A program made the position numbers and the translations under genes. The notes beneath the pieces were generated by a model. The model was not told the DNA's origin and searched no databases. It saw only the letters and a list, made by a program, of their open reading frames with translations. From contig CM041198.1 in assembly GCA_023078555.1 (NCBI GenBank), positions 10,793,874-10,857,873 on the forward strand: a stretch of 64,000 nucleotides of DNA. The letters are read 5' to 3'. Within the stretch, counting starts at the first letter, position 1. Each line of letters begins with the position of its first letter. Below are positions 9,269-53,336 of the stretch, piece after piece. This stretch comes from Ulva prolifera. Taxonomy: Eukaryota; Chlorophyta; Ulvophyceae; Ulvales; Ulvaceae.

Positions 9269-10236
9269 CTACTCATCAACAAAATCACCACTACCCTCAT
9301 TGATAGCAGCGAACAAAGTGAACAGAATGCTGAAAATCAGTAGCGGCTCAGTCTCGCTAAGTGGAACACCTGTTGTGAAACCAATCTGCCCAAGAGGCCC
9401 AAGGTCACCTGGCAGGAGTGTTTCACCAAGCAACATAGCCGCAAACCCCAATTGTGCCATACGCCCGACAAACAGCTCATTTTCCTTTGTAAAACCGAAG
9501 CCAGAAATTCCGAAGAATTTCTTGGGTTGCAGGACGGATACACTAGGATCCTGTAGGGAACCCTTGGGCCTTGCCTCAAACTCATCCTCTGGCAACACCA
9601 GTTTTCCCTTCGCAGGCAGCAGGGCAGCAATCAAGTTGAAAGCAATCAAAAACAGTACAGCACCATCAATGTCCGTGATGGATGAACCTGTTTCGATGCT
9701 CAATTGCCCCAGTGGTCCCTTCCCTGTGATGACTTCACCGATGGCAGCGAACGCTACACCAAGCATGGCCATCCTGCCAACAAACAGTTCATTGTCTGCA
9801 CGCAGTAGCATTGTCAACGTGGCTATTTTGCTCTCAACAACGGTGTGATTTTGATTAAACGGCACCGCACGCAAAACCAAACAGCAGTTTTTGACACGCG
9901 GCTTCAGCTAGTGTCAAGACCTCCATGACATACCACGTAAGAACAGCTGAATTGTGACTCGCACAAACATTCATCATACGTACGTGCGGAAAATTGAATC
10001 CGCACGCGGACACAGTAACAGATACGTAATCAGCCACTGATGTGCGGGACGGCCATTGGAGTGACCACACGTCGAGACCGGAGCGCACTCTTTGTGAAGC
10101 CCAAGGTGATTGGTACAGTTGTACTTTTGCCCAGGCGGACCTGGAACTGGGTTGCGTTGATATCGTCACGTTGGTTGGAGACAACACGGCCTTTGCCTTT
10201 GCCTGGGATATTTGTCGACGTCTGCAACCGGCCAAC
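9269..10236 (-). CDS. psbS: Photosystem II 22-kDa protein PsbS
   Basis: PsbS is a thylakoid membrane protein that senses lumen acidification and switches on energy-dependent quenching of excess light. The secure exon is 9269-9795 and encodes two tandem repeats, each starting NELFVGRMA, the LHC-superfamily helix signature, followed by a second hydrophobic helix; four membrane helices in total, ending AAINEGSGDFVDE. The upstream exon is tentative: a frame at 10038-10236 reading …RSRRVVTPMAVPHI looks like a plastid transit peptide, and its GT donor at 10037 joins in phase to the acceptor before 9795. That frame has no ATG of its own, so a further 5' exon is needed. In repeat 2 the lumenal loop keeps SETEP; in repeat 1 the matching positions read TDIDG. 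The doubled NELFVGR repeat separates it from one- or three-helix LHC proteins. Confidence 0.85.
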
Positions 10237-12468: not shown

Positions 12469-15317
12469 CTATTGGTGCCTCTTCATCAGGGCGACCCAGT
12501 CAGCTTTCTTCACACGTGGTGTGCGCCTGCTGGCCAGTTCCCAGACTTCTCCCTCAAAGCCAAGATCAATCAAGGACTCCTTTATTTCCTGTATTGTCAT
12601 CCCCTCAGCTGCACCCACTGATTGATCAAGCATGTCTACATCCACTGGTTCGCCAACAGCATCTCCGTGGCTGTCACGCGCTGAACGGCTCAGCTGGGCA
12701 ACATGCTGCTCAGTCTCAACCTGCAACCGCCTCAGCAAAGCATTTTGATCATCGTTGCCCTTTATGAGTTCCTTGTTCTCTTTCTTGACTGTTTCGAGCT
12801 CTGCTGTCAAAGCAGCTACCTTTTCCTACAGGACATAGTGGCAATAAAGACTACGCCCAGAGCACACTGTGTTCACCAATAGGCCTCACTAACGCACCTG
12901 CGCTGATATCTGTGCTTTATAAACCACAGCTTCCAAATCAGAAGCACGCAGCTGTTCACTTTTCAACTGTAAGGTCACCTCGTCCAGCTGACGCTGTACG
13001 CTTTCTTGCAGAGCCTGTGCTCGCTGCAAATCAGTTTCTGAACGAGCTTTTTCTGCTTGAGCCTTGCCGAGGACTTGCCGAATTTCATATAGCTCTGAGC
13101 TGAGCTTGCTTTCGCTCGTGCGTCGGTCATCCTGCACCAGTTGCCCCAACTGCAAGAACACAGCGTTGCAACTGCATATGCAATCCACTGAAAAGTTATC
13201 AGTGGGTACAGGCGTACCTGCATTTGTGCTCGAACGCGTTCCACTTCGTCAGCTATCTTCTGGTGTGCCGCATGCACTTGCCCCTCTAGAGCTCGTGCCC
13301 GTGCCTCCTCTGAACCTGCTGCTGCGCGGAGCTTGGCCACATCGGCTCGCTCCGTGTACAGCTTGGCCTCAGTTTCGGCAAGTGCTCGACTTGCAGCATC
13401 CTGTCGTGCATTAGCATCGCCCTCAACACGTTTCACGATTACTCCAATAGCAGACTGCAAGAATTCTACAAGCTTTGGCCACTTTGATGGGCCTTCCGCA
13501 GCATTGCGGAACTGGTTCAGGGATTCTTTGAGACCAGCAATGATTTCAGCTGTTCCATGTTGGCGGTCTGCAATGAGCCCGTTCAGATGGACATGCATGT
13601 CACTGATCAGGCTTGAAACCACTTGAGACGCTTGAGCGATGCGCTTTTCACGGACTTGGTCAAAAGCTCGATCCACTGCCGCACGCCATGTTTTGTGCAA
13701 TGCAGTCTTCACCATCTCATCTCCAATGGCTCCCTGCAGTAGAGCAGCTACCACTGACAAGTTTTTAACACAGTTGAATTCTGGCGCAGTCAAGGCGGCT
13801 CTATTTTGATCAGCTACAGGTATGCTGCAAACGCTGGTGTTGTTGGTATTGCAAGCCACATACCTCATTGTACACGGACGTGGCGACTGAGAGTGCGCGT
13901 TCGTGCTCTGCTGTTAAGACAATCTCATCTGCTGGCACATCTTCATTGAAAACTTCATGATACTTCTTTTCTGCGGCGTCTGCAGCACGCCGACATTCAG
14001 CCTCTGCCACTCCCTGCCATGCCGTGGCTATAGTTGGAACGGCCCCGCCGTTGATTGCATCCACATATGCGCTGACGAGTCCCGCTAGCATCGGACCAGT
14101 CAGCACTGTGCTGCCGATGCGCTTGGGTCGAGCACGAGAGAAGCACAAACTTACTAGCTTTGCAAGCCCATCCTGGAATTCAGGACGGAGCTGTGATGGC
14201 GCAACAGTTTCCAGGTGCGCCAGCTTCTGTTCATCTGAGATAGGCCGAACAAGCGCGAAGCAGTCTCGATCTGGAAACAGAGACTTGATTGACTCCCGAA
14301 TGCTATTCTTCGCCTTGGCGCCAGAAGATGTCTCTGGTACAGCACCGAGGGCTGTCTCCAGGTACTCTCTCGGTGTCACCTGTCTGCCATCTTCCTCAAG
14401 CTGCAAGTAAAAGTCCCTCAGCAGCCACAGGAAAGACGGAGTGAATTCTGAAAGTTCACCTTCAGCTGCTTGCCCTACAAACAATTCTTCATCATATCTC
14501 TGCAAATCAGTATATTTGACAGTCCACAGGCGTCCCATGCAGCAAAGCGCCTACAGACTGAACAACTGTTGTTTTGCCGAGAAGCCTAGGTACATTGAGC
14601 ATGCAATCCTGAAAATGGAAAGCACCTTTGTTGGCACGCACACGGATGTGCTTGGTCATCTCTGTTACAAGTGAAAGCCTGTCCAGTGCTGCTTCATCAA
14701 TGCCCCCCATTTGGTTGTAAACAAACAGACTTGACAGGAGGACAGCCAAAGAGAATATTTGAACACTGTACTGCCCTGTCTGGTCCCATGCATCAATACC
14801 TTCTGTATCCAGCATTACCTGTACTGGAACTGCAAGAGATGAGCACACATCTGATGAATGTGCAGAGCACACACAGATAGGACACATGTGCCATTGGCAC
14901 CACAGCCAGTGCATTCGAACAGAAATTTGGTCGCGACTTCACATTCCAATTGCAGAGTGCACCCTGCCGTCCACGTGAGCACACCAGATAGTTCTTGCTG
15001 CCATCTGGCAATATCCTCTCCTGAGGGGAAGACCACATCCATAATCCTTTCGTGCAGGGCCGGTGAGTTGGCGCAACCGTGAAACCAGAGGTTTGTCCAA
15101 GCAACTGGTTCAGAATAAAGGACTTTCCTTGCCGGGCCCGTCCGCAAACGCTGATCACTCCCATTGGCCCATTGACACTACGCAAGACCGACAAAGCTTC
15201 CTCACCGACTTCGAAACGTTTACTTGTGGAATCATATCGGACCAATTCGAGAGGCTGCCCGGAGCGTTCGGTGGTGGAGGAGCCGAACCAGCGTTGCATC
15301 ATACTCTTCTGCGTCAT
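12469..15317 (-). CDS. Guanylate-binding-protein-like large GTPase
   Basis: Dynamin-superfamily large GTPase of the atlastin/GBP group, with six exons at about 14985-15317, 14594-14818, 13864-14499, 13218-13813, 12898-13149 and 12469-12825. The start MTQKSMMQRWFG fits plant GBP-like proteins. Motifs in order: P-loop GRARQGKS; the cap APTHRPCTKGLWMWS; switch DTEGIDAWDQTG; and FVYNQMGGIDEAALDRLSLVTEMTKHIRV. Then comes the helical domain with FLWLLRDFYLQLEEDGR, a long coiled coil in exons 4-6, and a C-terminal SAP-like segment (MTIQEIKESLIDLGFEGE…W). The exon 2/3 and 3/4 junctions have alternative donors; the intron between exons 3 and 4 is only about 46-50 nt. In plants such proteins act in nuclear condensates during defence; the role in this organism is not known. 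The tyrosine-recombinase element ends about 215 bp upstream of the ATG. Confidence 0.88.
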
Positions 15318-15531
15318 CGGAAGAGCATCATCTGCAAGCAGTCAAGCCCAAACAGTGATTCACACGATAACGTCATGCGTGGCTTCCTGATCAATGTGTT
15401 AGTCTTGGGCTTGGAAGGACTTGAAACACGGGCCTCTAGCGCAACGTGGATGCTCCGCGGAAAAGCTTGACGTCGGCATGCATGGCAACGGCGCATGCGG
15501 TGCAGGAGAAATAGCGCGCTAGCACCAGCGG

Positions 15532-15722
15532 CTCTTCCCCACTTACACTGACGGCAAGAGGGCGCAAGGACGCCTCGAGATAACGAGGCCAGGAGTCAGC
15601 CCAACGCCGAGTCCTGCACTTGACATAACAGACAAGTACATGTAGGAAAGAGACAAACAAGCACAGCATCGTTCGTTGCTGAGCCTGCATGAAGTCTACA
15701 GGTCCAGCTTAATAAGAATCGC
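15532..15722 (+). repeat. Split direct repeat A1
   Basis: Left terminal repeat, from CTCTTCCCCACTTACACTGA to AATAAGAATCGC. It matches A2 at 21445-21635 over 191 bp with three substitutions seen by eye. Confidence 0.92.
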
Positions 15723-15728
15723 GGTAAG

Positions 15729-16352
15729 ATGTTGGAAGAAATGTTGACCGAGGGACACACGACGGCCGACACCAGCGATGACTTCGTCGCGTACACGCCA
15801 ATTTTCAGAGTACGCAAAGATCAGGTCGAAATTATTGGATTTGTGCGAGGTACTTCGTCAAGGGATCCGACAGGAGACGTGGGCTCTGCGCTATTCGTGC
15901 CCCACACAACGACAACGCTGAACGGGCTCCACCAGAGAATTGCTAACTTGCTTATTCCAATGACTCTGCTGTTCTCACCGAGCTTAAATGGCTTCAGCAG
16001 CGGCAGGGCGTACGTGGACATCGACGAAGCAGAGGTACCACAGGAGCGCAGACTAGAACTTATCGGCTGCATCCCAGAAGAAGACGTGGAAGCAGCGCTC
16101 GGAAAAACAAAACTAGCAGAACAGCCCCGAGGCTCGATATGGCTGGCGACTAAGACCGTCGACCCGCCCAGGCCGGAGACTAGATGCACTCAGAACGTTG
16201 AACCACCACAGGAGCTAGGAGGGAACCAAGAGAACAGGAACAGTGAGTTTAATCTCCCACCACCAGGCATGTCCATCACAGCACAGACCCAAGACTCAGA
16301 AAGCCCTGGACCTACTAGGAAAACCCGACACGACCACTCAGCCAAGGTATGA
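15729..16352 (+). CDS. Hypothetical 207-aa ORF of the recombinase element
   Basis: The frame opens with ATG (MLEEMLTEGHTTAD) just inside repeat A1, which is where PAT-like elements place their first, gag-like ORF. The translation is acidic and has no zinc knuckle or other domain that I recognise; the last third is Pro/Glu/Thr-rich and probably disordered. No close neighbour ORF on the same strand follows; the 49-bp minisatellite begins about 260 bp later. Gag-like identity is inferred from position only. Confidence 0.4.
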   Translation: MLEEMLTEGHTTADTSDDFVAYTPIFRVRKDQVEIIGFVRGTSSRDPTGDVGSALFVPHTTTTLNGLHQRIANLLIPMTLLFSPSLNGFSSGRAYVDIDEAEVPQERRLELIGCIPEEDVEAALGKTKLAEQPRGSIWLATKTVDPPRPETRCTQNVEPPQELGGNQENRNSEFNLPPPGMSITAQTQDSESPGPTRKTRHDHSAKV

Positions 16353-16610
16353 ACACCTCGCCACAGAGCAGGCCACCACGCCACTTGCCATGCCTTCCAG
16401 CCTGAAGTCAGCCACATTTAAGCGCACCCAGACCCAACTAGAAAGCCTGCCGCCTACGACTTCCACCGATAGGTAAGGGGAGACCGAGCAGCGGTCACCA
16501 TCAGAAATGCAAACCAACTGGGTAACATGAACGGTCGGCTAAGTGCAGCCCTAGCAGGGCGAGAGGCCCGTGGGAAAGAGCGAGGACACGCCGAGGCAGG
16601 GAGTTACGAC

Positions 16611-17147
16611 CTGCCCAGGTGCAGAAGAGCGAGGACCTGCTGCGGCAGCGAGCTGAGACCTGCCCAGGTGCAGAAGAGCGAGGACCTGCATAGGCAGCGA
16701 GCTGAGACCTGCCCAGGTGCAGAGGAGCAAGGACCTGCTGCGGCAGCGAGCTGAGACCTGCCCAGGTGCAGAAGAGCGAGGACCTGCTGCGGCAGCGAGC
16801 TGAGACCTGCCCAGGTGCAGAAGAGCGAGGACCTGCTGCGGCAGCGAGCTGAGTCTGCCCAGGTGCAGAAGAGCGAGGACCTGCTGCGGCAGCGAGCTGA
16901 GACCTGCCCAGGTGCAGAAGAGCGAGGACCTGCTGCGGCAGCGAGCTGAGTCTGCCCAGGTGCAGAAGAGCGAGGACCTGCTGCGGCAGTGAGCTGAGTC
17001 TGCCCAGGTACAGAAGAGCGAGGACTTGCTGCGGCAGCGAGCTGAGACCTGCCCAGGTACAGAAGAGCGAGGACCTGCTGCGGCAGCGAGCTGAGTCTGC
17101 CCAGGTGCAGAAGAGCGAGGACCTGCTGCGGCAGCGAGCTGAGATCT
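16611..17147. repeat. 49-bp minisatellite, about 11 units
   Basis: Units start near 16611, 16660, 16709, 16758, 16807, 16855, 16904, 16952, 17000, 17049 and 17097. The core is CTGCCCAGGTGCAGAAGAGC followed by GAGGACCTGCTGCGGCAGCG. Some units lose two bases (GAGTCTGCC for GAGACCTGCC), making 47-48 bp. The period is not a multiple of three, so no protein repeat is encoded. A diverged stray unit lies at 18347-18432. Confidence 0.95.
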
Positions 17148-17389
17148 AAGAGGCTATTCAGCTACTACAAGGCGCTGCAGCGTTGCCACAGGCGAAAAAG
17201 GGAAGCCACAGGCAAAAAAAAAAAAAGGGGGGGGGTAGCTCGTTGAGGGCAATGCTATACAGTCTACAGAGCAGGACACGGGGTGACGGTCCACACTTGT
17301 TTCAACATGCTATGTACAGCCATCACAGAATCAATCGCCTTATGGAGCAGAACAGCAGAATCAACTTGCCAATGATCCGAGCAGTATGT

Positions 17390-19740
<2,351 letters not shown>

Positions 19741-20083
19741 GTACAATGAACTCCTGTTGTGTTACACAGCGCCATGGACGACGAGATGTATCTTCAAGAA
19801 AGTCTAAATTGAATTCTGGCGGTTGTATCGTTACCGCATGTAAGGCTGAAGATCATATGTATAGAGAGGCACAATTTTCATTGTGAGTCTGCTCACGTGG
19901 TATCAGGAGCACCCGTCAGAAGAAGATAGCCAGCTGGCCAGGGAAAAATGTGATTATCAATGATTGCTACGGTGCTGCAATGTGGCCCACATCAGCAAGA
20001 CCTGGCAACCACACAAGTGGCCAGTGGAACACCGGCTTATAGAGTCTGCTCATCACATGAGACTAATGGTATATAATGTACGC

Positions 20084-21190
20084 CTATCGCAGGTGACGCC
20101 CACGGTCAGCGTATCGGTCGAAGGTAGCAGAACTGGCCATGCCAGTCCGCCTCATGGTGACCGCTGCAGGCTCCGCAGCAGCTTGGGCAGTTTGCACATG
20201 CCCTCTCCGGAAACTGTGCATAGTCTCCCCGCCGTCAACACCAAACCGCACGAGATTAGCCCTCACCCGGTTGCCGGCCGCTTGCGAAGACAGCCGCGGG
20301 GAACCAGGCCGCTGGGACCGAAACACAGCCCCAACAGGCGGCCTGCCGGACAGGGCACGCTGCCATTGATATAGGAGGCGGAGGCGCCGGATAGCACAGA
20401 GATCAGAGTTCTCCTGTATCGCAATCTCCTGGGTCTGGGGTCGCCGAAACTGCTCTGTCTTGCTGCGGCAGGGTACCATGAGAAGGCAACCAATCGGCGC
20501 CTCCGAATGAGGGAACTCCCCTGCCCAGGCATCACTGACCGAGACAACCGTACGGTCCGCGCGCTGCAAATAAAGATCCTCCCAGTCCACATACAGGGCA
20601 TCCTGACCCCTACGGCCACTGTTCCACAGATATAGGATATAGGTAGCATCCCTCAGGAGCACTGAGACCCTGGTAGCCACACCAGCAGCCGCTGCGGCGC
20701 GCAGCTCAACGTCCATGCGACCAATTAGAGCAGTCACAGTCTGGGGGGTAAAAGGCACAGCACTGCGTGGGCGCACCCCAACAACAGCCTGCCGCCGCTG
20801 GTAAGCACGCACAGCACCGCGCACCAGCTCCGATCGCACTGGATTCCCGTACCCCTCGTCACACCAGTCCCGGCTGCGCCCCCGGAAGTCGAAACACCGA
20901 CCCAGCGCACTGACCCAGCTTTGGAGGGTAGAAGTGGCCACACCCGCACAGGAGCGGCCGGTTAGGTTTGGGAGAAGATGCTCATGGAGGGACAAGCACA
21001 CATGGTCTGGGCGGCACGTGGCCCACCCCTGGTCCACTGTGGCAAACATCAGCTGCAGGAAAGGCGCAAACAGCTCGTTGGCCTTGGAATAGTTGGACTC
21101 CGTTCGGGGATGACGACAGAAGGAGCGCTCATCAGCGATCAGTCGTTCGCGCTCGGCGCGCAGCCGGGCCTCACGAGTGTTCGGAGACAA
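20084..21190 (-). CDS. Tyrosine recombinase of the split-repeat element
   Basis: A 368-residue frame with the catalytic pattern of tyrosine recombinases: the first arginine in SGRRGQD (residues 193-194), a beta-strand lysine candidate in CRSKTEQ (K244), the HSFR box (H325, R328) and the nucleophile in FDRYADRG (Y360). An N-terminal helical region (residues 30-150) would be the core-binding domain. Such enzymes cut and rejoin DNA through a 3'-phosphotyrosine and insert circular element DNA. The frame is opposite to the ORF at 15729, an arrangement I recall for some PAT-like elements. Oddity: the frame stays open to 21280 with no ATG; the first Met after the N-terminal region is residue 48. A spliced leader exon or decay are both possible. 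All catalytic residues are intact. Confidence 0.85.
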   Translation of the reverse strand: MSPNTREARLRAERERLIADERSFCRHPRTESNYSKANELFAPFLQLMFATVDQGWATCRPDHVCLSLHEHLLPNLTGRSCAGVATSTLQSWVSALGRCFDFRGRSRDWCDEGYGNPVRSELVRGAVRAYQRRQAVVGVRPRSAVPFTPQTVTALIGRMDVELRAAAAAGVATRVSVLLRDATYILYLWNSGRRGQDALYVDWEDLYLQRADRTVVSVSDAWAGEFPHSEAPIGCLLMVPCRSKTEQFRRPQTQEIAIQENSDLCAIRRLRLLYQWQRALSGRPPVGAVFRSQRPGSPRLSSQAAGNRVRANLVRFGVDGGETMHSFRRGHVQTAQAAAEPAAVTMRRTGMASSATFDRYADRGRHLR

Positions 21191-21354
21191 ACACAGGCCA
21201 TCTGCAGAGGGGCGACTGGGCCCGAATCGAAGAGCACTGAGATGCTGCTGAGCCTCAACCTGAACAGAACAAGTGAGAACTCAGTGCGAGTCAGACAGGA
21301 GTCAGACAGAGGTATGCTGCAAGCAGCGATTGGAATTGGATCTATAGGGCGGGC

Positions 21355-21449
21355 GGGGCCGGAAGAAGCTTCCATCGGGGGCCACCGTCTCATGCAAACT
21401 AATCAGCGGCTACCATCAGCTGAACGATACAGTGTAAAATCAGTCTCTT
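21355..21449 (+). repeat. Split direct repeat B1
   Basis: Ninety-five bases from GGGGCCGGAAGAAGCTTCC to CAGTCTCTT, repeated as B2 at 21943-22037 with very few differences (for example TCCATCGG against TCCACCGG). It overlaps A2 by the five bases CTCTT. Confidence 0.92.
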
Positions 21450-21635
21450 CCCCACTTACACTGACGGCAAGAGGGCGCAAGGACGCCTCGAGATAACGAG
21501 GCCAGGAGTCAGCCCAACGCCGAGTCCTGCACTTGACATAACAGACACGTACATGTAGGAAAGAGACAAACAAGCACAGCATCGTTCGCTGCTGAGCCTG
21601 CATGAAGTCTACAGGTCCAGCTGAATAAGAATCGC
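21445..21635 (+). repeat. Split direct repeat A2
   Basis: Internal copy of A1, directly abutting B1. The B1-A2 junction corresponds to the joint that would form if the two element ends were ligated in a circle. Confidence 0.92.
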
Positions 21636-21942
21636 ACCCACCCACCACCCAATAGCAGAGGAACGGAAACCGCCGGAGCACAGCTCGAAGGAGAGAACGC
21701 AGGAACAGCCCTACACACACAGAGGAGTAATCAAGAGAGAACCGAGACTCGACACCGGGAGATGCAACAAAAACGGGCACAGCCCCGACCTAGAGAGAGT
21801 GACACAAACAGACACACGCTGTTGGTAGCCCGCTATACAATTCCCCAGCTGTGAAGGCAGACAGCTGGCACAGACAGCCCGACATGCATGTGCACATGTA
21901 GCCACACGTAGCCATCAGTCATGTCGTGGCGGCGCCCACCCG

Positions 21943-22037
21943 GGGGCCGGAAGAAGCTTCCACCGGGGGCCACCGTCTCATGCAAACTAATCAGCGGCTA
22001 CCATCAGCTGAACGATACAGTGTAAAATCAGTCTCTT
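21943..22037 (+). repeat. Split direct repeat B2 (right end of element)
   Basis: Right terminal repeat, ending CAGTCTCTT before flanking GCACGGTGTTGCGG. No longer duplication of flanking DNA is seen beyond the shared CTCTT. Confidence 0.9.
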
Positions 22038-24927: not shown

Positions 24928-26427
24928 CTAAGTCTCCACTAGCTGGAGTTTATTACGAACTTCCTGCAAGGCAGGTCCGGGCAGCACTTTGGTAAACACA
25001 TCCGCCAACTGATCAACAGTGCCAACCCATGCTACCTTAAGTTCATCCATCTGGACATATTCCCGCACTCGCAAGTGCCGCACACGAATGTGCTTGGATC
25101 TGTCAGTGGAAACAGCGTTCACGGCCAAAATATTGGCACTCTTATTATCACCCCACAGAGTTGGCTTACGTGGGACAAGTTTCACATCGAGAAGCAACTG
25201 CTTCATCCACATGAGCTCGTTGGCTGTTGCACTCATCGCAATGAGCTCAGCCTCTGTTGTATCCCCAGCCACTATACTCTGCTTCTTCGAACGCCAGAGA
25301 ACACAGTTCCCATACACCCGAACAATCATACCAGACACACTCTTCAGATCTGCAGAATTCGCAAAGTCTGCATCTGAAAACGCCTCTAGTAGGCACCCAT
25401 GTCCCTCAGAGCCTATAAATTTTATTCCTAAATTCTTTGTGGACTGCAGGTATCTCAGAACATGTTGCACGGCAGACCAATGTTCCTTCAGACTACTAGA
25501 CATGTGCCGGGCCAGGGCATGTGCCACATAGCTCGGGTCAGGTCGTGTCACTCCTGCAATATACTGGATGCTCCCTACAGCACTCATGAACCTGGAATGC
25601 TCAGCAGCACTGGCTTTCTCCACGTCAGGGTGCTCTTTCACACTCCTTAGCTGTTGCCGCGGCACTAATGGAGTGGGAGATTTACGACAGTCAGACATAC
25701 TGTACTTGTCTAGCAAGTTCTGGATTTTGTTGCGTTGTGTCATTGTGATGGTTTGGGCCTTTCGATCACGCGTGATCTCAGTGCCAAGTGCCCAAGACAG
25801 GTCACCTAGGTCTCTGCCTTCGAATTTTGTGAGAATGACACCGACGATTTCCTGCAGCTCCGCGGAGCAACTGAAAATAAATAAGTCATCCACCCACAGG
25901 AAAACAAAGCATCGACCGGTTTTACTGACATACAGTCCAGGATCACTCTGTGCGCACACAAATCCCAGTGCAGCCAAGACCTTTACTAAAGCTTTATGCC
26001 ACTCGCGAGCGGCTTGCTTCAGGCCATACAGAGTCTTATGCAATTTCCATACACGTGCTGTCCCATCCGTGAAGTACGGGGGCTGTTCAACGAAAACGTC
26101 TTCCTCCAGGTCACCGTTCAGAAAAGCACACTGTATGTCTATATGCTTAATCTCCAAGTCCTCCTGAGCAGCAATAGACAGCAACACACGCAGTGTCGCG
26201 TAACTACCGACAGGGGACCAGGTCTCGAAGAAATCAACTCCTTCTACCTGAGAATAACCACGAGCTACATATCGTGCCTTGTAACGCTGAATCTCACCAG
26301 CAGGTCCGCGCTTGATCTTGAACACCCACTTGCCCGAGATAGCTTTCTTACCCGCAGGCAGATAGCACAACATAAATGTCCCGTGCTCACCCAGTGCTTC
26401 CACTCCTCCTGCATGGCACGCAGCCAA
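24928..26427 (-). pseudogene. Copia reverse transcriptase and RNase H
   Basis: A 499-residue frame covers the RT from GKWVFKIKR through FFETWSPVG, IDIQCAFLNGDLEEDVFVEQP, YGLKQAAREWHKAL and the catalytic VDDLFIFS (in the position of YVDD). RNase H follows with SDADFANSADLKSVSG, TTEAELIAMSATANELMWMK and WGDNKSANILAVN. The end DQLADVFTKVLP…LQLVET is the normal copia C terminus. The frame is intact but joined to the upstream domain only through a frameshift near 26400. Confidence 0.92.
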
Positions 26428-27225
26428 GCATCCCTGTCTGGACCCGCGAGTCCTTCCTTCATAGAAGGCAGATCAGGGTCGGAAGGCTTCTGCTTCCTGG
26501 CGGCAGCTGCTCTGCGTGACCCACGACGCTGAGCACTCTGCTGCTCACCAGACTCCCCATGCTGATGCTTCAGGCCTGCACCGGACACTCCACAGTCAGC
26601 CGCGGCTGATGTGTCCTGATTGCAGCCTGGAGACTTGATGTCAGCTACTACTGTTTCACAACTAGCAAGATCAGAGCCCGCGGGCTCATGCACAGCAGCT
26701 ACATCCACAGCCAAAGGAACAAGGCGTCTACGTACAAGAGGATTGATTTTAATGCGGGGAAGAGCAGCTGGAAAGGCTCTTACCTCATCAGGCAAATCAA
26801 CCCCGACAGCGGCTGAGGGGGCAGCCTGGACCTCTCCCCCTAATTCGGATCCGGACTCCATCTCAATTTCATCTGGCTCATCCTCCCAGGAAGGTTTCAG
26901 CCCCTCAGCCCCTCGCAGGGGCTTAGCTACTGCTCCCGCGCCAGATGCTGAGGCCGCAGCCGAATTACTCCCTGATCGGACCCGCTGAGCCTCGCGATTC
27001 TGATGGGCCGCAGCCCGTTCATCATCGCTGATGGTGTACTCCTCCATCTCATCTGCATCGTCCTCATCGTAGATGCCAGGACCGTCGTCGTCATCATCTT
27101 CGTCCATCGAATCATCAGACGACGGCGGAGGCATGGGCAGGACACATGCAGCTTCGATGCCAGGGTCATGGAGCTGAGGATTGCGAGTCACCACATACTC
27201 GACAGTGCGTGCTGGAGGGGCCCCA
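26265..27225 (-). pseudogene. Copia integrase-RT linker region
   Basis: A separate frame encodes the acidic, low-complexity linker (runs of Asp/Glu, then Ala/Ser-rich) and ends in DRDAWLRAMQEEWKHW, the start of the copia RT. It is offset from both neighbours, so single-base indels near 27200-27230 and near 26400 broke one original polyprotein. Confidence 0.8.
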
Positions 27226-29440
27226 GATAGGCGCGCCTGTCCTGGGACCCGAAGAGGGGTTCAACGTCAGGGTGGGCAGCTGCACGAGCAATCGCACGCG
27301 TGCGATGCATGGTGTGCCTGGCCACCTCCGGTGTGTCCCGCGCAGGGTCACGCCGGAGCACCTCAGCGGAGGAACCTGCGCCGAAACGCGGAGAGTACAT
27401 TGCCTCATCAGGCAGTGCGTCCTGTCTGAACGTCATGTCCATGGCAGGGACTCTACCATGACGTGGGGGGGCGTGCGAAAATTCACGCAGACGTCGCAGC
27501 ACTCCCCCATCATGTGTGGAGTCAGTGACGAACGAGGGGACATCACTGTCAGTCACGCGGACACCCTCGTCATCACCCTCAAAGACAACTTGCAGGGAGT
27601 TCGCAAACTCTGCAGGTTCTCTCTTGTCCACAACAGCGGACGCATCGTACTTACGTACGTGTCGGATCATCTGATCCGTGGTGCACATGATCTGCCGCAC
27701 CACCACAACCCTACCCCCAGGAACGTCATGGGCGTACACACGCTGCATGCTGGGCCCCAGCCCAGCACCAACCCAGTATGCGACCATACCCTGCGCGGAC
27801 AACTTCCGCAACTTATCATCCCTAGGGTACGCATACACCTCAACCCCCCATGGACGCTGCTGCTTCACCAAATCCTGGAACACCTCAACGGAGGTGTCTC
27901 TGAAAAAAGACATGTAGGGAATGATGTCCCTATCACAAGACCTGGTCAAAAACTCATCCAGTTCTGTCATAGTGAGCAACTCCCACTTGCGCTTCTCCTC
28001 CTCCCGCAACTTATCACGTTCGGCCTTTTTCATGCGCTTATTAGCCCGCTCAGCCTGCTGTACATCCGCAGCTGTATTGGCATCACGCTGAGCTTTCTGA
28101 GCTTTCATCATTATTGCCAGTTTGTCATGGTGCAGCGCCGAGCACGGCGTGAGATTGTGACCATGGATGACACTGGCAAGGCATTCAATCCACAGGAACA
28201 GAGGAAGACCGCTCGCAAGCAGTACAGCTCGGACTGCCTCGAAAGCAATACCGATCCTCCGCTCGATCATGCCATTACAGCGATGATCAGCTGTGGGGGT
28301 GGTGCGGTGAGTGATGCCACGACGCTGGAGGTAGAGCTTTAAGGCCTCAACCATGAACTCTCCCCCTTTGTCGGTGTGAAGGATGCGCACACCCGGTTCA
28401 CCTGGCTTCACCACATTCACCCGAACGCGCTCAATGATGTAAGAGATCATGGCCGCAGCCTCACTCTTCTTACGCAGACCGACAATGAAAGTATAACGCG
28501 TGAAGGCGCACATCACAAATAAAACATACTTCACACCGCCGATCCCAACTGGAGTGATGGGACCAGCCAAATCAGCATGCAATTGCTCGCCAGGGTATTT
28601 CGCCTGGCCTAAGAGCTCACGATTATTGGCTGAGATTTTGCCCGCGGGCACTTTGCCAATTCTGCAGCCGTGACAACGATTCCCCATTGGCTCGGGGTCA
28701 ACTTTCAAATTCAGGTCACCATAAAAATCACTATTTGACTGCATCCGTTTTAAGACCCACGTCGACTGATGAAACGACAAATGAGCTAGGAATGCAGGTT
28801 CCAGCAAGTAAGCATCATGTGGGACCTCAGCTCCCCCAGCATTGAGGCGCTTGAGGTCGATCGCCGCAGCGGCCACATGACACCACTGGTGTTGATCTGC
28901 CACAACAGAGGTCGGACTGCTCTGGTCGGACCACACCACTCCCCTGTTGACAGGATGACCCTCAAGAACAGGCTTCTTGATGGAACACATTTTGAAAGCA
29001 AAGACGCGACACTCATCCTCATCCAGCTCCTGGTGTTTGGACGCATCCTCAATACCAGTAGCCATGTCTCCGAAACCGGGGACATACAACACACTCCTAC
29101 GCGTGTCTAAGTAGATCTTCTCGTGACGAAGACCCATAGTACTCAGTATGTTATATGGACACTCAGGGGCATAGTACACACCCGGGATTTCCACATCCAG
29201 AGGATGCTTATTCCCATGCTCATCCACATAGGTGCCCAGGTTCACCTGAATGGTTCCCCTGCCCATAATGGGGATCTTGCCTGGTCCCGCGGGATTGGCA
29301 GTTCTCTGGCACGGACCATACTCAGTGAACATGTCGCGATTGCCAACAATGTGAATGTCAGAACCGCTATCAATGATAAAATTCCACGGTGCTAATGCAT
29401 CATGATCCGGGAACTCTTCAGGCAGTTCTACAGCACAAAC
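27188..29440 (-). pseudogene. Copia protease and integrase
   Basis: Protease: FIIDSGSDIHIVGN with the DSG triad. A GAG-pre-integrase region follows with HLSFHQS and GNRCHGCRIGK. The integrase core has the DDE set: HADLAGP, HTDKGGEFM and CNGMIERR. The later part contains the GRVVVVRQIM segment of the integrase C-terminal region. The catalytic residues are intact, but the frame is disconnected from gag by an apparent 2-bp deletion near 29440 and from the linker by an indel near 27200. Confidence 0.9.
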
Positions 29441-30470
29441 ATCTTTGGCCGGCCTGTTTGCGCTGGGGGCAGTTCGCACGCAAGTGTCCCTTCTTCTTGC
29501 AGAAGAAGCAGGTCCTGGTCTCCTCGCGAGGAGCCTTGCCAGCGTCGAGCGCGGCAACTGCGGGACCGTCGCCTCGCTGCTGATTGCGGCAGCCTTGGCC
29601 TGGTTTGCCCGCGGGCGGACCAGACCTAGCCTGCAGCCGCTGCTGCTTGAGCAAATCAGCATGCTCAGGCAAACGTGCAATGATGACATGAGGGGAGGAG
29701 TGTTGAACTTCGCCGCGCACAGCATTGAACTCCTCCCCCACTTCTAAAAGTTTTAATCAGAGCCATCGCTGGCCCACATCGGCACCTAGTGCCTCCAATT
29801 GAGTGTACACACTCATCACTTCACCACAGTACGACCCAACGTCTCTATTTCGCTGTGACAGAGAGTTGAAACGACTCCACAGTCTGTGGATCTCAGCGTC
29901 AGTGCTAGGCCTCTACTTTGCAGTGAGATAGGCCCATGCTTCACACAGATGTGACATGCGATAGACAGTGGTCCTATCCGCGTCAGGCAAAGACATAAGG
30001 ACTTGGGTCCTTGCTCTGGCGTGGACACGCTGTTCGTCCGCGGACGGTGCGTGCTGCAACAGATGGTCTAACTCAAACTGTCCTAACCACAAAAAGACTT
30101 TCTGCTCGTACGCAACGAAGCTTTCGGTCTTAAAATTCCATTCAGGCAATTTCCCTTTGGACAGATCAGGCTCGTTACGTCCCCGAGATGCACGCAGCGC
30201 TTCGGTCAACGTCTCGAGTGTGATGAAAGACTCAGTGTGACCATGATCGTTCACAACATGAGAGGAAAAAGGCACCTGCTGGCTGCTCTGCCCAGTCTGG
30301 GAAGAGGGACGTGGTCGGATAACTCGTCCGCCACGAAGTAACATGCCCGCGGGCTGTTCTCCTTCAGGGAGCTGCTGGTCAGCGTCCCTGTTGTCGATTG
30401 GCTGATGATCAGCCTCGTCCTGCCTCTCCTCGCGAGGAGAGTTGGCGTTAGAGCGATCGGAGTTAGACAT
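29418..30470 (-). pseudogene. Copia gag, interrupted by stops
   Basis: The likely start is the ATG at 30468-30470 (MSNSDRSNANSPREE). The capsid-like part contains LPEWNFKTESFVAYEQKVFL. A zinc knuckle follows, CFFCKKKGHLRANC (CCHC). Compared with copy 2, an in-frame TAG replaces a Tyr codon near 29920 and a TGA replaces an Arg codon near 29760. The gag reading frame is therefore dead. Confidence 0.88.
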
Positions 30471-30775
30471 CCTGCAGTAGGACGGAGGGTGGTTTGTTGC
30501 GCGCAGCAAACAAAACCATGGGATGGCTCGCAAGCCGATAGGTTGAGAAAATAAACGAACGCATTCGCTTTTCCCAGCGCCGATCATTAAAGCAAGCGTC
30601 TCGAATTGTATCTAATAACAGTGTTGCGAGATCGCCTAATGATGCCTGCGCTTATGACCGCGGTCTGAGCGCCGGCAGAACAGTGGAATGCCCGCCGTGT
30701 TTGCGCACAGACTTTGGCCGACGGCTTCCTGAACAAGACCATAGGTCAGAGGATCGTAACCTCTCACCGATACCA

Positions 30776-33184: not shown

Positions 33185-33525
33185 ATGGTATCGATGAATG
33201 TTAGCGTTATGTCTGTCTATGGTCTTGTTCAGGAAGCCGTCGGCCAATGTATGTGCGCAGACACGGCGGGCATTCCACTGTTCTGCCGGCGCTCAGACTG
33301 CGGTCAAAAGCGCAGGCATTATTTAGCTATCTCGTAGTATATTGTTGTTAGACACAATTCGAGAAGCTTGTTTTAATGATCAGCGCTGAGAAAAGCGAAC
33401 GCGTTAGCTTATTTTTCTCGACCTGTCTGCTTCTGGACAGACTGTCTGCTTTCTCGACCTGTCTGCGAGCAATCCCATCGGTTAGTTGCTGCGCGCAACA
33501 AACAACCGTCCGTTCCTACTGCTGG

Positions 33526-34575
33526 ATGTCTCTTTCCAACGCCAACTCCAACGCCAACTCTCCTCGCGAGGAGAGGCGTGACGATGCTGACCAGCAGCCT
33601 CTCGTCGACAGGGACGCTGACCAGCAGCTCCCTGACGGAGAACAGCCCGCGGGTATGTTGCTCCGGGGCGGACGAATTGTCCGGCCACGACCCTCTTCCC
33701 ATACTGGGCAGAGCAGCCAGCAGGTGCCTCTTTCCTCTCATGTTGTTGACGATCACGGTCACACTGAGTCATTCATCACGCTCGAGACGTTGACCGAAGC
33801 GCTGCGTGCATCTCGGGGACGTAGCGAGCCTGATTTGACCAAAGGGAAATTGCCTGAATGGAATTTTAAGACCGAAAGCTTCGTTGCGTACGAGCAGAAA
33901 GTCTTTTTGTGGTTAGGTCAATTCGAGTTAGACCACTTATTGCAGCACGCACCGTCTGCGGACGAACAGCGTGTCCATGCTAGGGCGAGGACACAGGTCC
34001 TGATGTCTTTGCCTGACGCGGATAGGACGACTGTCTATCGCATGTCACACCTGTGTGAAGCATGGGCCTATTTGACTGCAAAGTATAGGCCTAGCACCGA
34101 AGCCGAAATCCACAGACTGTGGAGTCGGTTCAATTCTTTGTCACAACGCAATAAAGATGTCGCGACATATTGTGGTGATGTGATGAGTGTTTACACTCAA
34201 CTGGAGGCACTAGGTGCCGATGTGGGCCAGCGATGGCTTCGTTTGAAACTGTTAGAAGTGGGGGAGGAGTTCAACGCTGTGCGCGGCGAAGTCCAACACT
34301 CCTCCCCTCATGTGATCATATCACGTTTGACTGAGCATGCTGACTTGCTCAAATCACAGCGACAGCTGCAGGCTAGGTCTGGGGCGCCCGCGGGCAAACC
34401 AGGCCATGGCTGGCGCAAGCAGCACCGTGGTGATGGTCCTGTGGTCGCCGCTCTCGCGGCCGGCCAGGCTCCTCGCGAGGAGACCAGAGCTGTTCCTTCT
34501 GCAAGAAGAAGGGACATTTACGTGCGAACTGCCCCCAACGCAAACAGGCTGCGGCCAAGTATGTTTGCGCTATAG
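33526..34575 (+). pseudogene. Copia gag of copy 2
   Basis: Starts MSLSNANSNANSPREE and is open through the capsid region where copy 1 has stops. A 1-bp indel just before the zinc knuckle (near 34490) throws it out of frame; the knuckle itself (CSFCKKKGHLRANC) continues in the frame of the following protease. Confidence 0.85.
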
Positions 34576-35141
34576 AGATGCCTGCCAAGTATCCGCAACC
34601 GGACGCGTCTCTGCCGTGGAACATTATTGTCGATAGTGGGTCGGACATGCATATAGTAGGAAATCGTGAAATGTTCACTGAGTACGGTCCGTGTCAGAAA
34701 GTTGCCAATCTCGCGGGACCAGGGCAGCTTTCTATCATGGGCAGGGGAACCATTCAGGTGAACCTGGGTACTTATGTGGACAAACATGGGAACAAGCATC
34801 CGCTGGATGTGGAAATCCCTGGTGTTTACTATGCCCCTGAATGTCCGTACAACCTGCTCAGCACAATGGGTCTTAGACATGAGCAGATGTTCCTAGATAC
34901 GCGTAGAAATGTGTTGTATGTTCTTGGTCTGGGTGATATGGCTACCGACGTAGAGGATGACGTCAAATATCCGGAACTAGATGTGGATGGTCACCCTGTC
35001 TTTGCGCTCAAAATGGCAGTCGAGACCAAACCAATTCTCGTCGGTGCTCCTGTCAATAGGGGGGTAGTCTGGTCTAACCAGAGCAGTCCGACCTCAGTGA
35101 TTGAGGATCAACAGCAGTGGCATCATGTGCACATGTGCGGG
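34490..35141 (+). pseudogene. Copia zinc knuckle and protease of copy 2
   Basis: Contains the CCHC knuckle and NIIVDSGSDMHIVGNREM with the protease DSG. The frame ends artificially where a solo LTR enters at 35142. Confidence 0.85.
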
Positions 35142-35492
35142 TGTCACAATGCATGAGCCTGCGGGCAGCAGTATGGTGACAGGTGCACCCATGCACGGAC
35201 GATCCGCGGATCCAGTGCAGGGGTAAGCCGCCCGCCGAGATTGTCTCGATGTAGTGAGAGAGATCCCGCGAGGGTTTCCCGAGCGTAACCTTGAGTGTTC
35301 AGTGTGCATATAAGCATGTGCACACTGAGATCTGTAACCATTTCTTATCACTGTTTCACGGTACTAGTTGTATCTTGTCTCCCCTCAGCGTCTCTCTGGT
35401 TCTACCTCTGTGCGCAGCAGGTATGAGATGCTGGCCTCCTGACTTGACATAAGACTGCGCGTCTGACCTGACGAAGGATAGACTTTCTGACA
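35142..35492 (+). mobile_element. Solo copia LTR inside copy 2
   Basis: TGTCACAATGC…TTTCTGACA, 351 bp, interrupts the pre-integrase region. Flanking GCGGG (35137-35141) and GCGGT (35493-35497) look like a 5-bp target duplication with one change. The protein resumes with AVAAIDLQRPNAGGAEV after it. Confidence 0.85.
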
Positions 35493-36106
35493 GCGGTCGC
35501 GGCCATTGACCTGCAGCGACCCAATGCTGGAGGAGCTGAGGTCCCGCATGATGCATACTTGCTGGAACCTGCTTTTCTTGCGCACTTGTCTTTTCATCAG
35601 TCGAATTGGGTTCTCAAACGCATGCAATCCAACGGTGAATTTTATGGTCATTTGAATTTGGATGTCGATTCCGAGCCACTGGGAAATCGGTGTCACGGCT
35701 GCAGAATTGGCAAAGTGCCTGCGGGTAACTTTTCTGCCAATGATCGTGAGCTCATGGGTCAGGCCAAGTGGCCTAGTGAGCAACTGCACGCCGATTTAGC
35801 TGGTCCTGTCTCTCCAGTAGGAATTGGTGGTGTGAAATATGTTTTGTTTGTGATGTGTGCCTTTACCCGTTATACTTTCGTGGTCGGTCTGCGCAAAAAG
35901 AGTGAGGCTGCGGCCATGATCTCTTACATTATTGAACGCATTCGGGTGAATGTGGTGAAGCCAAGTGAACCGGGTGTGCGCATCCTACACACCGACAAAG
36001 GGGGAGAGTTCATGGTCGCGGCCTTAAAACTCTACCTCCAGCGTCGTGGCATCACTCACCGCTTGACCCCCACAGCCGCTCATCGCTGTAACGGCATGAT
36101 CGAGAG
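35493..36106 (+). pseudogene. Copia integrase fragment of copy 2
   Basis: Continues through GNRCHGCRIGK, HADLAGPVSPVG, HTDKGGEFMVA and HRCNGMIER. It therefore keeps all of the DDE core, then stops at the rearrangement joint about 36107. Confidence 0.88.
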
Positions 36107-37402
36107 GAGCTGCTACATCCGCAGCCAATGGAACAAGGCGTCTGCGTACAAGACGATTGATTTTAATATGAGGTAAGGCAGCTGGAATGGCCCTCACCTC
36201 GTCAGGCAAATCAACCCCAACTGCGCCTAATTCGGACCCGGTCTCCACCTCATCTGGCTCATCCTCACAGAAGGGCCTCGGCGCCTCAGCTCCTCGCAGG
36301 GCTGAGCAACTGCCCCCGCGCCAGATGCTGAGGCCGCTGCCGAATTACTTCCGGAACGGACCCGCTGAGCCTCCAGATTCTGATCGGCCGCAGCCCGTTC
36401 ATCATCTAAGACGGTGTAAGCCATGCGTTGTTCATCATCGTCGTCATAGATGCCAGGACTGTCGTCGTCCTCATCCATGTCATCATCAGACGCACTGACA
36501 GACATTTGAACAGGAAACGCAGCTTCCACACCAGGGTCGTGCAACACGGCATTGCGCGTGACAACATACTGCGCAGTGCGAGAGGGCATGGCGACAGGAT
36601 GATGCACTTCGCCGTGCACACGAGGGGGGACAGGGACGTCAGGGTGAGCAGCAGCTCTGGAAGTCGCACGCGTGCGATGCAAAGCTGCTCTGGCTATTTC
36701 CGGTGTTGCCCTAGCAGGGTCACGTCGGATTATCTCCGCAGAGGAGCCAGCTCCAAATCGTGGAGAGTACACAGCAGGACTGGGCTCAGGGTTGTCCTGC
36801 CGGAATGTCATTTCCATGACAGGAACCCTACCATGACCAGGGGGGGTGTGAAGCTGGTCACGCAGACGGCGCAACACTCCCCCATCATGCGTGTGCTCTG
36901 CCGCGAAAGGGAGGACATCAGCATCAGTCACACACTCACCCTCATCGTCCCCCTCGAAGGCAACCGTATACAAACTCTGCACATGACCTGACGCACAACA
37001 AAAACCCTACCCCCCGGAACATCCTGGGCGTACACACGCTGCATGCTGGGGCCCAGACCAACCCCGACCCAGTATGCAGGCACACCCCGCGGGGACAACT
37101 TCCGCAGCTTGTCATCCCTAGGGTATGCATACACCTCAACCCCCCACGGACGCTGCTGCCGCAGCAGATCTTGGAACACCTCAACGGAGGTGTCTCTGAA
37201 AAAGGCCATATAAGGAATGATATCCTTATCACAAGACTGCACTAAAAACTCGTCTAATTCTGTCGTCGCAAGCAACTTGTACTTGCGTTTCTCCTCATCC
37301 CTCAACTTATCGCGCTCGGCCTTTTTCATGCGCTTTCCCTTCCCCAGGCTTTTCTCAGCTTCGTCAACATCCGCAGATGCGTTGACAGCATGCTGACCTT
37401 TT
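36107..37402 (-). pseudogene. Inverted integrase-C/linker segment of copy 2
   Basis: On the minus strand it encodes KKAERDKLRDEEKRK, FFRDTSVEVFQDLL, PWGVEVYAYPRDDKLRKLS and GGRVFVVRQVM, then the acidic linker to RRRLVPLAADVAA. These follow the integrase core in copy 1. The segment is internally deleted and frameshifted near 36960 and joined directly to an LTR at 37403. Confidence 0.85.
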
Positions 37403-38015
37403 CTCATACCTGCTGCGCACAGAGGTAGAACCGGAGAGATGCTGAGGGGAGACAAGATACAACTAGTACCGTGAAACAGTGATAAGAATGGTTACAGATC
37501 TCAGTGTGCATATGCTTATATGCACACTGAACACACAAGGTTACGGCGGGAAACCCTCGCGGGATCTCTCTCACTACATCGAGACAATCTCGGCTGGCGG
37601 CTTACCCCTGCACTGGATCCGCGGATCGTCCGTGCATGGGTGCACCTGTCACCACACTGCTGCCCGCAGGCTCATGCATTGTGACAGCGGGCAGCAGTGT
37701 GGTGACAGGTGCACCCATGCACGGTCGATCCGCGGATCCAGTGCAGGGGTAAGCCGCCAGCCGAGATTGTCTCGATGTAGTGAGAGAGATCCCGCGAGGG
37801 TTTCCCGCCGTAACCTTGTGTGTTCAGTGTGCATATAAGCATATGCACACTGAGATCTGTAACCATTCTTATCACTGTTTCACGGTACTAGCAGTATCCG
37901 ATCTCTCCCTCGCATTCCTCGGTTCTACCTCTGTGCGCAGCAGGTATGGAATGCTGGTTACCTGACCTGACTTAAGACTGCGCGTCTAACCTGCAGATAG
38001 AGCATATTTCTGACA
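37403..38015. repeat. Head-to-head LTR palindrome
   Basis: A minus-oriented LTR piece (37403-37686) abuts a plus-oriented LTR (37687-38015). Arms of at least 230 bp share private variants (for example CACACAAGG / CCTTGTGTG and GATAAGAATGG / CCATTCTTATC), with only about 15-19 bases unpaired at the centre. The distal parts differ, matching two LTR variants. Confidence 0.85.

Positions 38016-52172: not shown

Positions 52173-53336
<1,164 letters not shown>

What the first reader, a model, noticed from the sequence alone, without database searches (positions are those of the whole stretch)
15532..22037. Split-repeat tyrosine-recombinase element that appears to lack a reverse transcriptase
Seen: repeats in the order A1-ORFs-B1A2-B2, with exact 191-bp and 95-bp copies, and a full tyrosine recombinase (R193/194, K244, H325xxR328, Y360). 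Known: this architecture belongs to PAT/Ngaro/TOC1 retroelements, which need RT and RNase H to make cDNA. Here the ~3.7 kb that should hold them is satellite DNA. Inference: either a non-autonomous TOC1-like element that kept its own recombinase and borrows an RT, or a DNA-only recombinase element that converged on split repeats. Either is unusual, because non-autonomous elements normally lose their enzymes.
Basis: partly seen in the sequence, partly recalled or inferred. Interest (0 to 1): 0.78.

Follow-up and report, generated by a model that had tools for sequence, protein, structure and literature searches.

The report
Algal jumping gene missing its copier
This is a mobile DNA element of what looks like a green alga; it has lost the enzyme it needs to copy itself but kept the enzyme that inserts it, and since relatives in the same genome still carry the copying enzyme it most likely borrowed theirs to move recently.

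Summary
A split-direct-repeat element (A1 … B1A2–C–B2, real ends about 15534–22034) encodes a tyrosine recombinase (YR) on the minus strand and has no recognisable reverse transcriptase (RT), RNase H or Gag. The repeats are near-exact (3 and 1 mismatches). Six RT-less copies were found, five with the full repeat set, at unrelated sites with precise ends and no target duplication; L031 differs from the window copy by 5 substitutions in 6.5 kb. Four same-family loci keep Gag, RT and/or RNase H in the missing place; the most complete has the same A and B ends and a YR 97% identical. A decayed piece of the lost polyprotein's last ~70 residues remains beside the YR in the RT-less copies. So this is a non-autonomous PAT-like (DIRS-order) retroelement, not a DNA-only convergent one. 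The '3.7 kb satellite' is the element's own module. The unusual part: RT-less copies keep an open YR frame (5 of 6) with dN/dS 0.09–0.18, whereas the YR is broken in 4 of 4 RT-bearing loci found. Window and L031 are mosaics of RT-less and RT-bearing parts. RT in trans is inferred, not shown.

The parts
15534..22034 (.). Whole RT-less element, A1 to B2 (ends CTTCCCC / CAGTCT)
   Evidence: ends set by comparing flanks of six insertions; L031 99.07% identical over 15534-22035
15534..15722 (+). A1 repeat (left end, just before ORF1)
15729..16352 (+). ORF1 from its first ATG (frame open 15693-16352), function unknown; of the type found in RT-bearing loci
   Evidence: no Pfam match
16576..17144 (.). 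49-bp tandem array, shared by RT-less and RT-bearing copies
17160..19850 (+). RT-less module: degenerate 43/44-bp units with an AG run at 18813-18942; stands in the place of Gag-RT-RNase H
19866..20063 (+). Decayed relic (stops inside) of the C-terminus of the RT/RNase H/MT-like polyprotein, tail-to-tail with the YR
20084..21280 (-). Tyrosine recombinase frame, 398 residues, R223/R224-K274-H355xxR358-Y390
21260..21280 (-). Pyrimidine-rich stretch ending in CAG, splice-acceptor-like; YR probably begins in an upstream exon (inference)
21355..21446 (+). B1 repeat
21447..21635 (+). A2 repeat, directly abutting B1 (the internal circle-junction copy)
21636..21942 (+). Spacer C between A2 and B2
21943..22034 (+). 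B2 repeat (right end)

Best explanation
A non-autonomous PAT-like (DIRS-order) YR retroelement, probably of a green alga. An ancestor with A1-ORF1-49-bp array-Gag-RT-RNase H-MT-like domain, tail-to-tail with an inverted YR, then B1A2-C-B2, lost Gag-RT-RNase H, and a ~2.7-kb block of degenerate 43-bp units stands in their place. Proposed working: its RNA is copied by RT/RNase H from relatives (inferred); the internal B1A2 junction templates restoration of the ends and a circle (PAT model, recalled; repeat rewriting seen here); its own YR, or a sibling's, inserts the circle without target duplication (ends seen, activity inferred). Co-replication with RT-bearing siblings allowed template switching, giving the window/L031 mosaic (structure shown, route inferred).
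For: Six RT-less copies (window, L031, L032, L033, L034 complete; L041 lacking A2-C and one B). Both ends read at 6 sites (the five complete copies plus RT-bearing L035/L036): same ends, unrelated flanks, no TSD. Four RT-bearing same-family loci; in the most complete (C5:7735.5k to 7704.6k) the order is A1, ORF1, array, Gag, RT (frame 722 aa open), nested insertion, RNase H/MT, inverted YR 97%, B1A2, B2. The partial RT of L049 matches Pfam RVT_1 at E 4.5e-5. Relic of the polyprotein C-terminus in the same place in 6 of 6 RT-less copies, clear in four, weak in L032 and L034. Gag and RT searches of the genome gave 9 hits each, none inside the six RT-less copies; RT profile nothing above shuffled controls. 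Window vs L031: 5 substitutions, 4 in repeats, 3 of which make L031's A1 equal to A2. A1=A2 within L032, L034 and L035/36 despite changes private to a copy. Mosaic 5' modules.
Against: No intact RT-bearing copy of the same family was found: the YR is broken in 4 of 4 loci, and one has a 24-kb gap between RT and RNase H, so the present RT donor is unknown. Repeat homogenisation could come from ordinary gene conversion. The window has A1 differing from A2 by 3 and L033 by 5. The YR tree interleaves RT-less and RT-bearing copies with supports of 36-51 at those nodes, so the number of RT losses is unclear. YR dN/dS is also below 1 between RT-less and RT-bearing copies (0.11-0.43), so the selection need not have acted in the RT-less line. 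No RNA, circle or transposition data.
Confidence: 0.86

Rival explanations
1. DNA-only YR element: after losing RT it moves by YR excision as a circle (Crypton-like) and re-integration, the split repeats being left over.
For: YR frame open in 5 of 6 RT-less copies with low dN/dS; RT gone from six copies whose YRs differ by up to 0.20 at synonymous sites; no intact same-family RT-bearing copy found.
Against: A1 rewritten to the A2 sequence in a near-identical copy and A1=A2, B1=B2 with private changes in L034 fit templated copying; YR excision by itself does not homogenise repeats. Window and L031 are mosaic with RT-bearing relatives.
Confidence: 0.07
2. Dead passengers: the copies spread by segmental duplication or ectopic recombination, and YR conservation reflects recent descent from RT-bearing masters.
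For: Reticulate modules; the YR of window and RT-bearing L035 differ by dS about 0.04.
Against: Flanks differ at each of six sites while ends are base-precise; the joined window flanks find only the two window flanks, no duplicated locus; window and L031 are nearly identical in two unrelated contexts.
Confidence: 0.06

Closest known systems
Same-family RT-bearing loci in this genome (C5:7704.6-7735.5k, C5:394.8-399.1k, C5:6898.7-6906.2k, C4:6888.1-6893.3k)
   Same: 49-bp array in 4 of 4, A end and ORF1 in 3 of 4, inverted YR 97% and 95% identical in the first two, broken pieces in the others
   Different: Gag in 4 of 4, RT in 3 of 4, RNase H/MT in 4 of 4; YR broken in 4 of 4
Kangaroo (Volvox carteri), PAT group of DIRS
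   Same: green alga, split direct repeats, inverted YR (PMC4157794 passages)
   Different: Kangaroo's internal repeats lie between MT and YR; here B1A2 lies beyond the YR next to the right end; RT absent here; no sequence compared
Unnamed Daphnia pulex PAT element (PMC4157794 passages)
   Same: inverted YR with internal repeats next to the 3' terminal repeat, as here
   Different: crustacean host, placed by its RT; no sequence compared
TOC elements of Chlamydomonas (TOC1, TOC2, TOC3)
   Same: algal PAT group with split repeats (PMC3266345 and PMC4157794 passages); TOC1 recalled as RT-less and non-autonomous (no text seen)
   Different: Toc3's YR is not inverted; no TOC sequence compared here
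SIRE, truncated non-autonomous derivative of VIPER (PMC6681497 passages)
   Same: non-autonomous relative of a YR retroelement with split repeats
   Different: SIRE keeps only end sequences; this element keeps a full YR frame

Membership tests
PAT group of DIRS-order retroelements | split direct repeats A1 ... B1A2 ... B2 | tested here: met
PAT group of DIRS-order retroelements | tyrosine recombinase | tested here: met
   motif residues (the lysine does not align in the 33-35% relatives); PHROG integrases E 2.7e-5 and 0.0026. Against: no Pfam or PDB-sequence match, structure model unusable
PAT group of DIRS-order retroelements | RT and RNase H encoded by the element | tested here: not met
   not found in the window copy; present in same-family siblings. 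Hence filed as a non-autonomous derivative, not as an autonomous PAT element
PAT group of DIRS-order retroelements | no target-site duplication | tested here: met
   6 of 6 sites with both ends read; the two ends share 0-5 nt
PAT group of DIRS-order retroelements | MT-like domain after RNase H | tested here: inconclusive
   siblings have a conserved domain there and the window keeps a relic of its end; that it is MT-like is recalled, no Pfam match
PAT group of DIRS-order retroelements | placement in an RT tree with PAT references | not tested
   no reference PAT, DIRS or Ngaro sequences were on hand; sibling RT only partly held
Kangaroo | inverted YR with internal repeats between MT and YR | tested here: not met
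   YR is inverted but B1A2 lies beyond it
Toc3 | YR not inverted | tested here: not met
   YR tail-to-tail with RNase H in siblings
Crypton (DNA-only YR transposon) | no RT | tested here: inconclusive
   this copy has none, but its lineage had one: polyprotein relic and RT-bearing siblings

The most novel reading that the evidence does not exclude
A two-part retroelement: RT-less copies supply a working YR (frame open in 5 of 6) while RT-bearing copies, with broken YR in 4 of 4 loci found, supply Gag/RT/RNase H, so that neither type moves alone. Selection then keeps the YR in a lineage without RT, and template switching between co-packaged RNAs makes the mosaics seen in the window copy.
Probability: 0.12. 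Interest if true: 0.8.

Novelty: new variant of a known kind. Interest (0 to 1): 0.52.

Why it matters
Non-autonomous retroelements usually shed their enzymes (general knowledge). Here an RT-less lineage keeps an open, conserved recombinase frame, moved very recently, and shares modules with RT-bearing siblings. That gives a natural test of which steps of PAT/DIRS replication work in trans and which in cis, and whether YR prefers its own DNA; the replication model for this order rests largely on anatomy (recalled). The window/L031 pair also gives a snapshot of A1 apparently rewritten from A2.

Tried and rejected
Host satellite capture: rejected, because the 17290–19960 block was found in or beside element copies or fragments (45 matches from 16 candidates; one place, C3:11093115-11093680, not checked; the tool calls such counts lower bounds). 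Hidden RT in diverged form: the sibling-built RT profile gave nothing above shuffled controls in 6 of 6 RT-less copies (its positive control, L049, was itself in the profile); the Gag profile had no positive control, so Gag absence rests. Pfam RVT_1 over the genome scored 150 of 452 candidates and is not used as negative evidence. Viral contigs held no relative of the YR. PDB sequences gave no YR match. The structure model was unusable (mean pLDDT 32, made without an alignment because the rows of mine came from sources that tool does not list). An empty site was sought with joined flanks and not found. Literature: seven searches, of which aimed at non-autonomous or TOC elements. I saw no paper on an RT-less, YR-keeping PAT element, but two reviews of YR retrotransposons looked up by DOI are not held, so this is not proof of absence. 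Papers were seen as listings or passages only.

Rows left out: one search shows hits of 80 bases or more, at most 40 rows a locus; dN/dS used 12 sequences, the window and 11 others, out of the 59 YR matches, and the YR tree 14 sequences; L041 is left out of the A1/A2 and B1/B2 comparison because it has one A and one B only.

Errors of mine: one search used loci on the wrong strand for L033, L034, L049, L050 and L052; its numbers are discarded and replaced. One search stopped before its last pairwise table; one search stopped after the tree, and the YR-upstream part was redone. output was cut. E-values use composition statistics off and a set database size; the genome-wide value for the relic in L033 is 2.9e-4.
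Full report
Setting. The window is G000:C3:10793874-10857873 of an 88.9-Mb, 44-contig assembly. The host looks like a green alga: an LHC/PsbS-like frame lies at 9269-9907 minus (identity recalled), and a guanylate-binding-protein gene lies just left of the element.

The element. Repeats were confirmed. A1 is 15534-15722 and A2 21447-21635; B1 is 21355-21446 and B2 21943-22034. A1 and A2 differ by 3 bases and B1 and B2 by 1, so they are near-exact. The flanks of six insertions (window, L031, L032, L033, L034 and the RT-bearing L035/L036) fix the ends at CTTCCCC...CAGTCT. They show no target duplication and no fixed target; in the window copy CTCTT occurs at both ends and also at the B1A2 junction. 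The YR frame is 398 residues on the minus strand with R223/R224, K274, H355xxR358 and Y390. R223/R224, H355, R358 and Y390 are invariant in the 8-sequence alignment; the lysine does not align in the 33-35% relatives. Profile support is from PHROG integrases (E 2.7e-5; L058 relative 4.8e-7); Pfam and PDB sequences gave nothing.

RT-less copies. Searching the genome with window 21340-22037 gave 39 matches. RT-less copies are the window, L031 (C3:10.63M), L032 (C7:3.54M), L033 (C5:0.39M), L034 (C1:6.09M) and L041 (C3:11.11M); five have the whole repeat set, L041 has one A and one B only and a diverged left end. Five of six have an open YR frame; L041's is split over two frames. The block 17290-19960 gave 45 matches; they lie in or beside copies and fragments of this family, except one place that I did not check (C3:11093115-11093680). 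It is thus an element module, not host satellite.

RT-bearing siblings. The YR search (59 matches) and the RNase H/MT search (34 matches) show four same-family loci that keep missing genes: C5:7704.6-7735.5k, C5:394.8-399.1k, C5:6898.7-6906.2k and C4:6888.1-6893.3k. Gag is found at 4 of 4, RT at 3 of 4 (none at C4), ORF1 at 3 of 4, RNase H/MT at 4 of 4, the 49-bp array at 4 of 4. Only C5:7704.6-7735.5k shows both A and B ends; there the order is A1, ORF1, 49-bp array, Gag, RT (722-aa open frame), a nested insertion, RNase H/MT, inverted YR, B1A2, B2. The RT fragment of L049 has LPFGL, VDD and LGF motifs and matches RVT_1 at E 4.5e-5, under Pfam's own cut-off score (23.7 against 29.6 bits), with only the second half of the domain held. 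In 4 of 4 loci the YR is interrupted by a stop, truncation or fragmentation. Sisters with YR 54-55% identical (L052, L054) and the related L055 also have the RNase H-tail region tail-to-tail, so RT is taken as ancestral.

Relic. On the plus strand at 19866-20063, beside the YR stop, the window keeps a stop-ridden stretch matching the last ~70 residues of the sibling polyprotein (38% to L049). A profile built from nine siblings finds it in all six RT-less copies: E 1.2e-5 (L033), 4.6e-4 (window, L031), 5.4e-4 (L041), but only 0.027 (L032) and 0.26 (L034); the best among six-frame texts of 20 shuffled elements was 2.2. The copies are related, so these are not six independent finds. The RT profile found nothing beyond shuffled controls in the six (best 4.6 against 0.26 for a shuffle). 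Genome searches with sibling RT and Gag gave 9 hits each, none within the six RT-less copies.

Mosaics. L032, L033, L034 and L041 share a 5' module of about 650-840 bp without ORF1; window and L031 instead carry the ORF1 module of the RT-bearing type (98.9% to L036) and the RT-less body. From the YR to B2 the window is 97.6% identical to RT-bearing L035, while left of the YR stop no DNA similarity was found between them. The YR tree places RT-bearing L035/L049 among RT-less copies, with weak supports of 36-51 at those nodes. Template switching during shared reverse transcription is the natural reading, but ectopic recombination would also do.

Repeats and recency. Window and L031 differ by 5 substitutions in 6.5 kb plus a 54-nt and a 2-nt length change; 4 of 5 lie in A1 or B1, chance 2.6e-4 by area. 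Three of them make L031's A1 identical to A2; the B1 one is private to the window. A1 equals A2 in L031, L032, L034 and L035/36 (4 of 6 examined); window has 3 and L033 has 5 differences. B1 equals B2 in 4 of 6, with 1 difference each in window and L035. L034 shares private changes in both A and both B copies. This is what templated restoration of the ends predicts; gene conversion is a weaker alternative.

Selection. Among RT-less YRs (window/L031, L032, L033, L034) dN/dS is 0.09-0.18 with dS 0.04-0.13 (Fisher 1.1e-4 to 1.6e-10); pairs with L041 give 0.22-0.31; RT-less against RT-bearing L035/L049 gives 0.11-0.42, or 0.31 and 0.43 where the RT-less one is L041; the RT-bearing pair L035-L049 is 0.60 with Fisher 0.17. 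Because YR modules move between RT-less and RT-bearing copies, part of this selection may have acted in RT-bearing ancestors.

YR expression. The YR frame has no ATG before residue 78, yet nine residues before it (E37 to L75) are invariant down to the 33-35% relatives. A pyrimidine-rich stretch ending TTCTGTTCAG at the start of the frame is the same in the five copies with an open YR and in L035. A spliced YR mRNA is inferred.

Verdict. A non-autonomous PAT-like retroelement derived from RT-bearing relatives in the same genome, recently mobile, keeping its own recombinase frame. Architecture (inverted YR, B1A2 next to the right end) matches the D. pulex PAT element described in PMC4157794 better than Kangaroo or Toc3 (passages). 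What is open is where RT now comes from, and why YR is kept.

Noticed in passing
window 24928-30611 (-) and 33352-37491: Two Ty1/copia-type retroelements with long Gag/Pol-like frames close together (type recalled from motifs, not searched).
   Followed up: no
window 12975-15341 (-): Guanylate-binding-protein gene frames (Pfam GBP and GBP_C); the element sits about 190 bp from the start of the first recognised frame and may affect its promoter.
   Followed up: no
L058, L059, L061, L062 (C7:1.80M, C6:0.28M, C3:6.56M, C6:5.52M): A second PAT-like family, YR about 35% identical with 438-aa open frames and RNase H-like frames 94-96% alike, tail-to-tail: a possible RT donor; whether its RT frame is whole was not seen.
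   Followed up: partly
G000:C6:2492340-2497642: Open frames distantly related to ORF1 (28% and 25%) and Gag (28%): perhaps a third family with the same ORF1-Gag order.
   Followed up: no
L033 / L005 / L049, C5:388-400k: An RT-less copy abuts the 49-bp-array end of an RT-bearing copy, whose YR is in turn cut short next to a copia-type frame.
   Followed up: partly
window 17160-19850: The RT-less module differs less between copies (2-8.5%) than YR synonymous sites in most pairs, win-L032 being an exception; it may be constrained as RNA, or mutation rates differ.
   Followed up: no
window 53187-53302: A perfect (GT)58 run.
   Followed up: no
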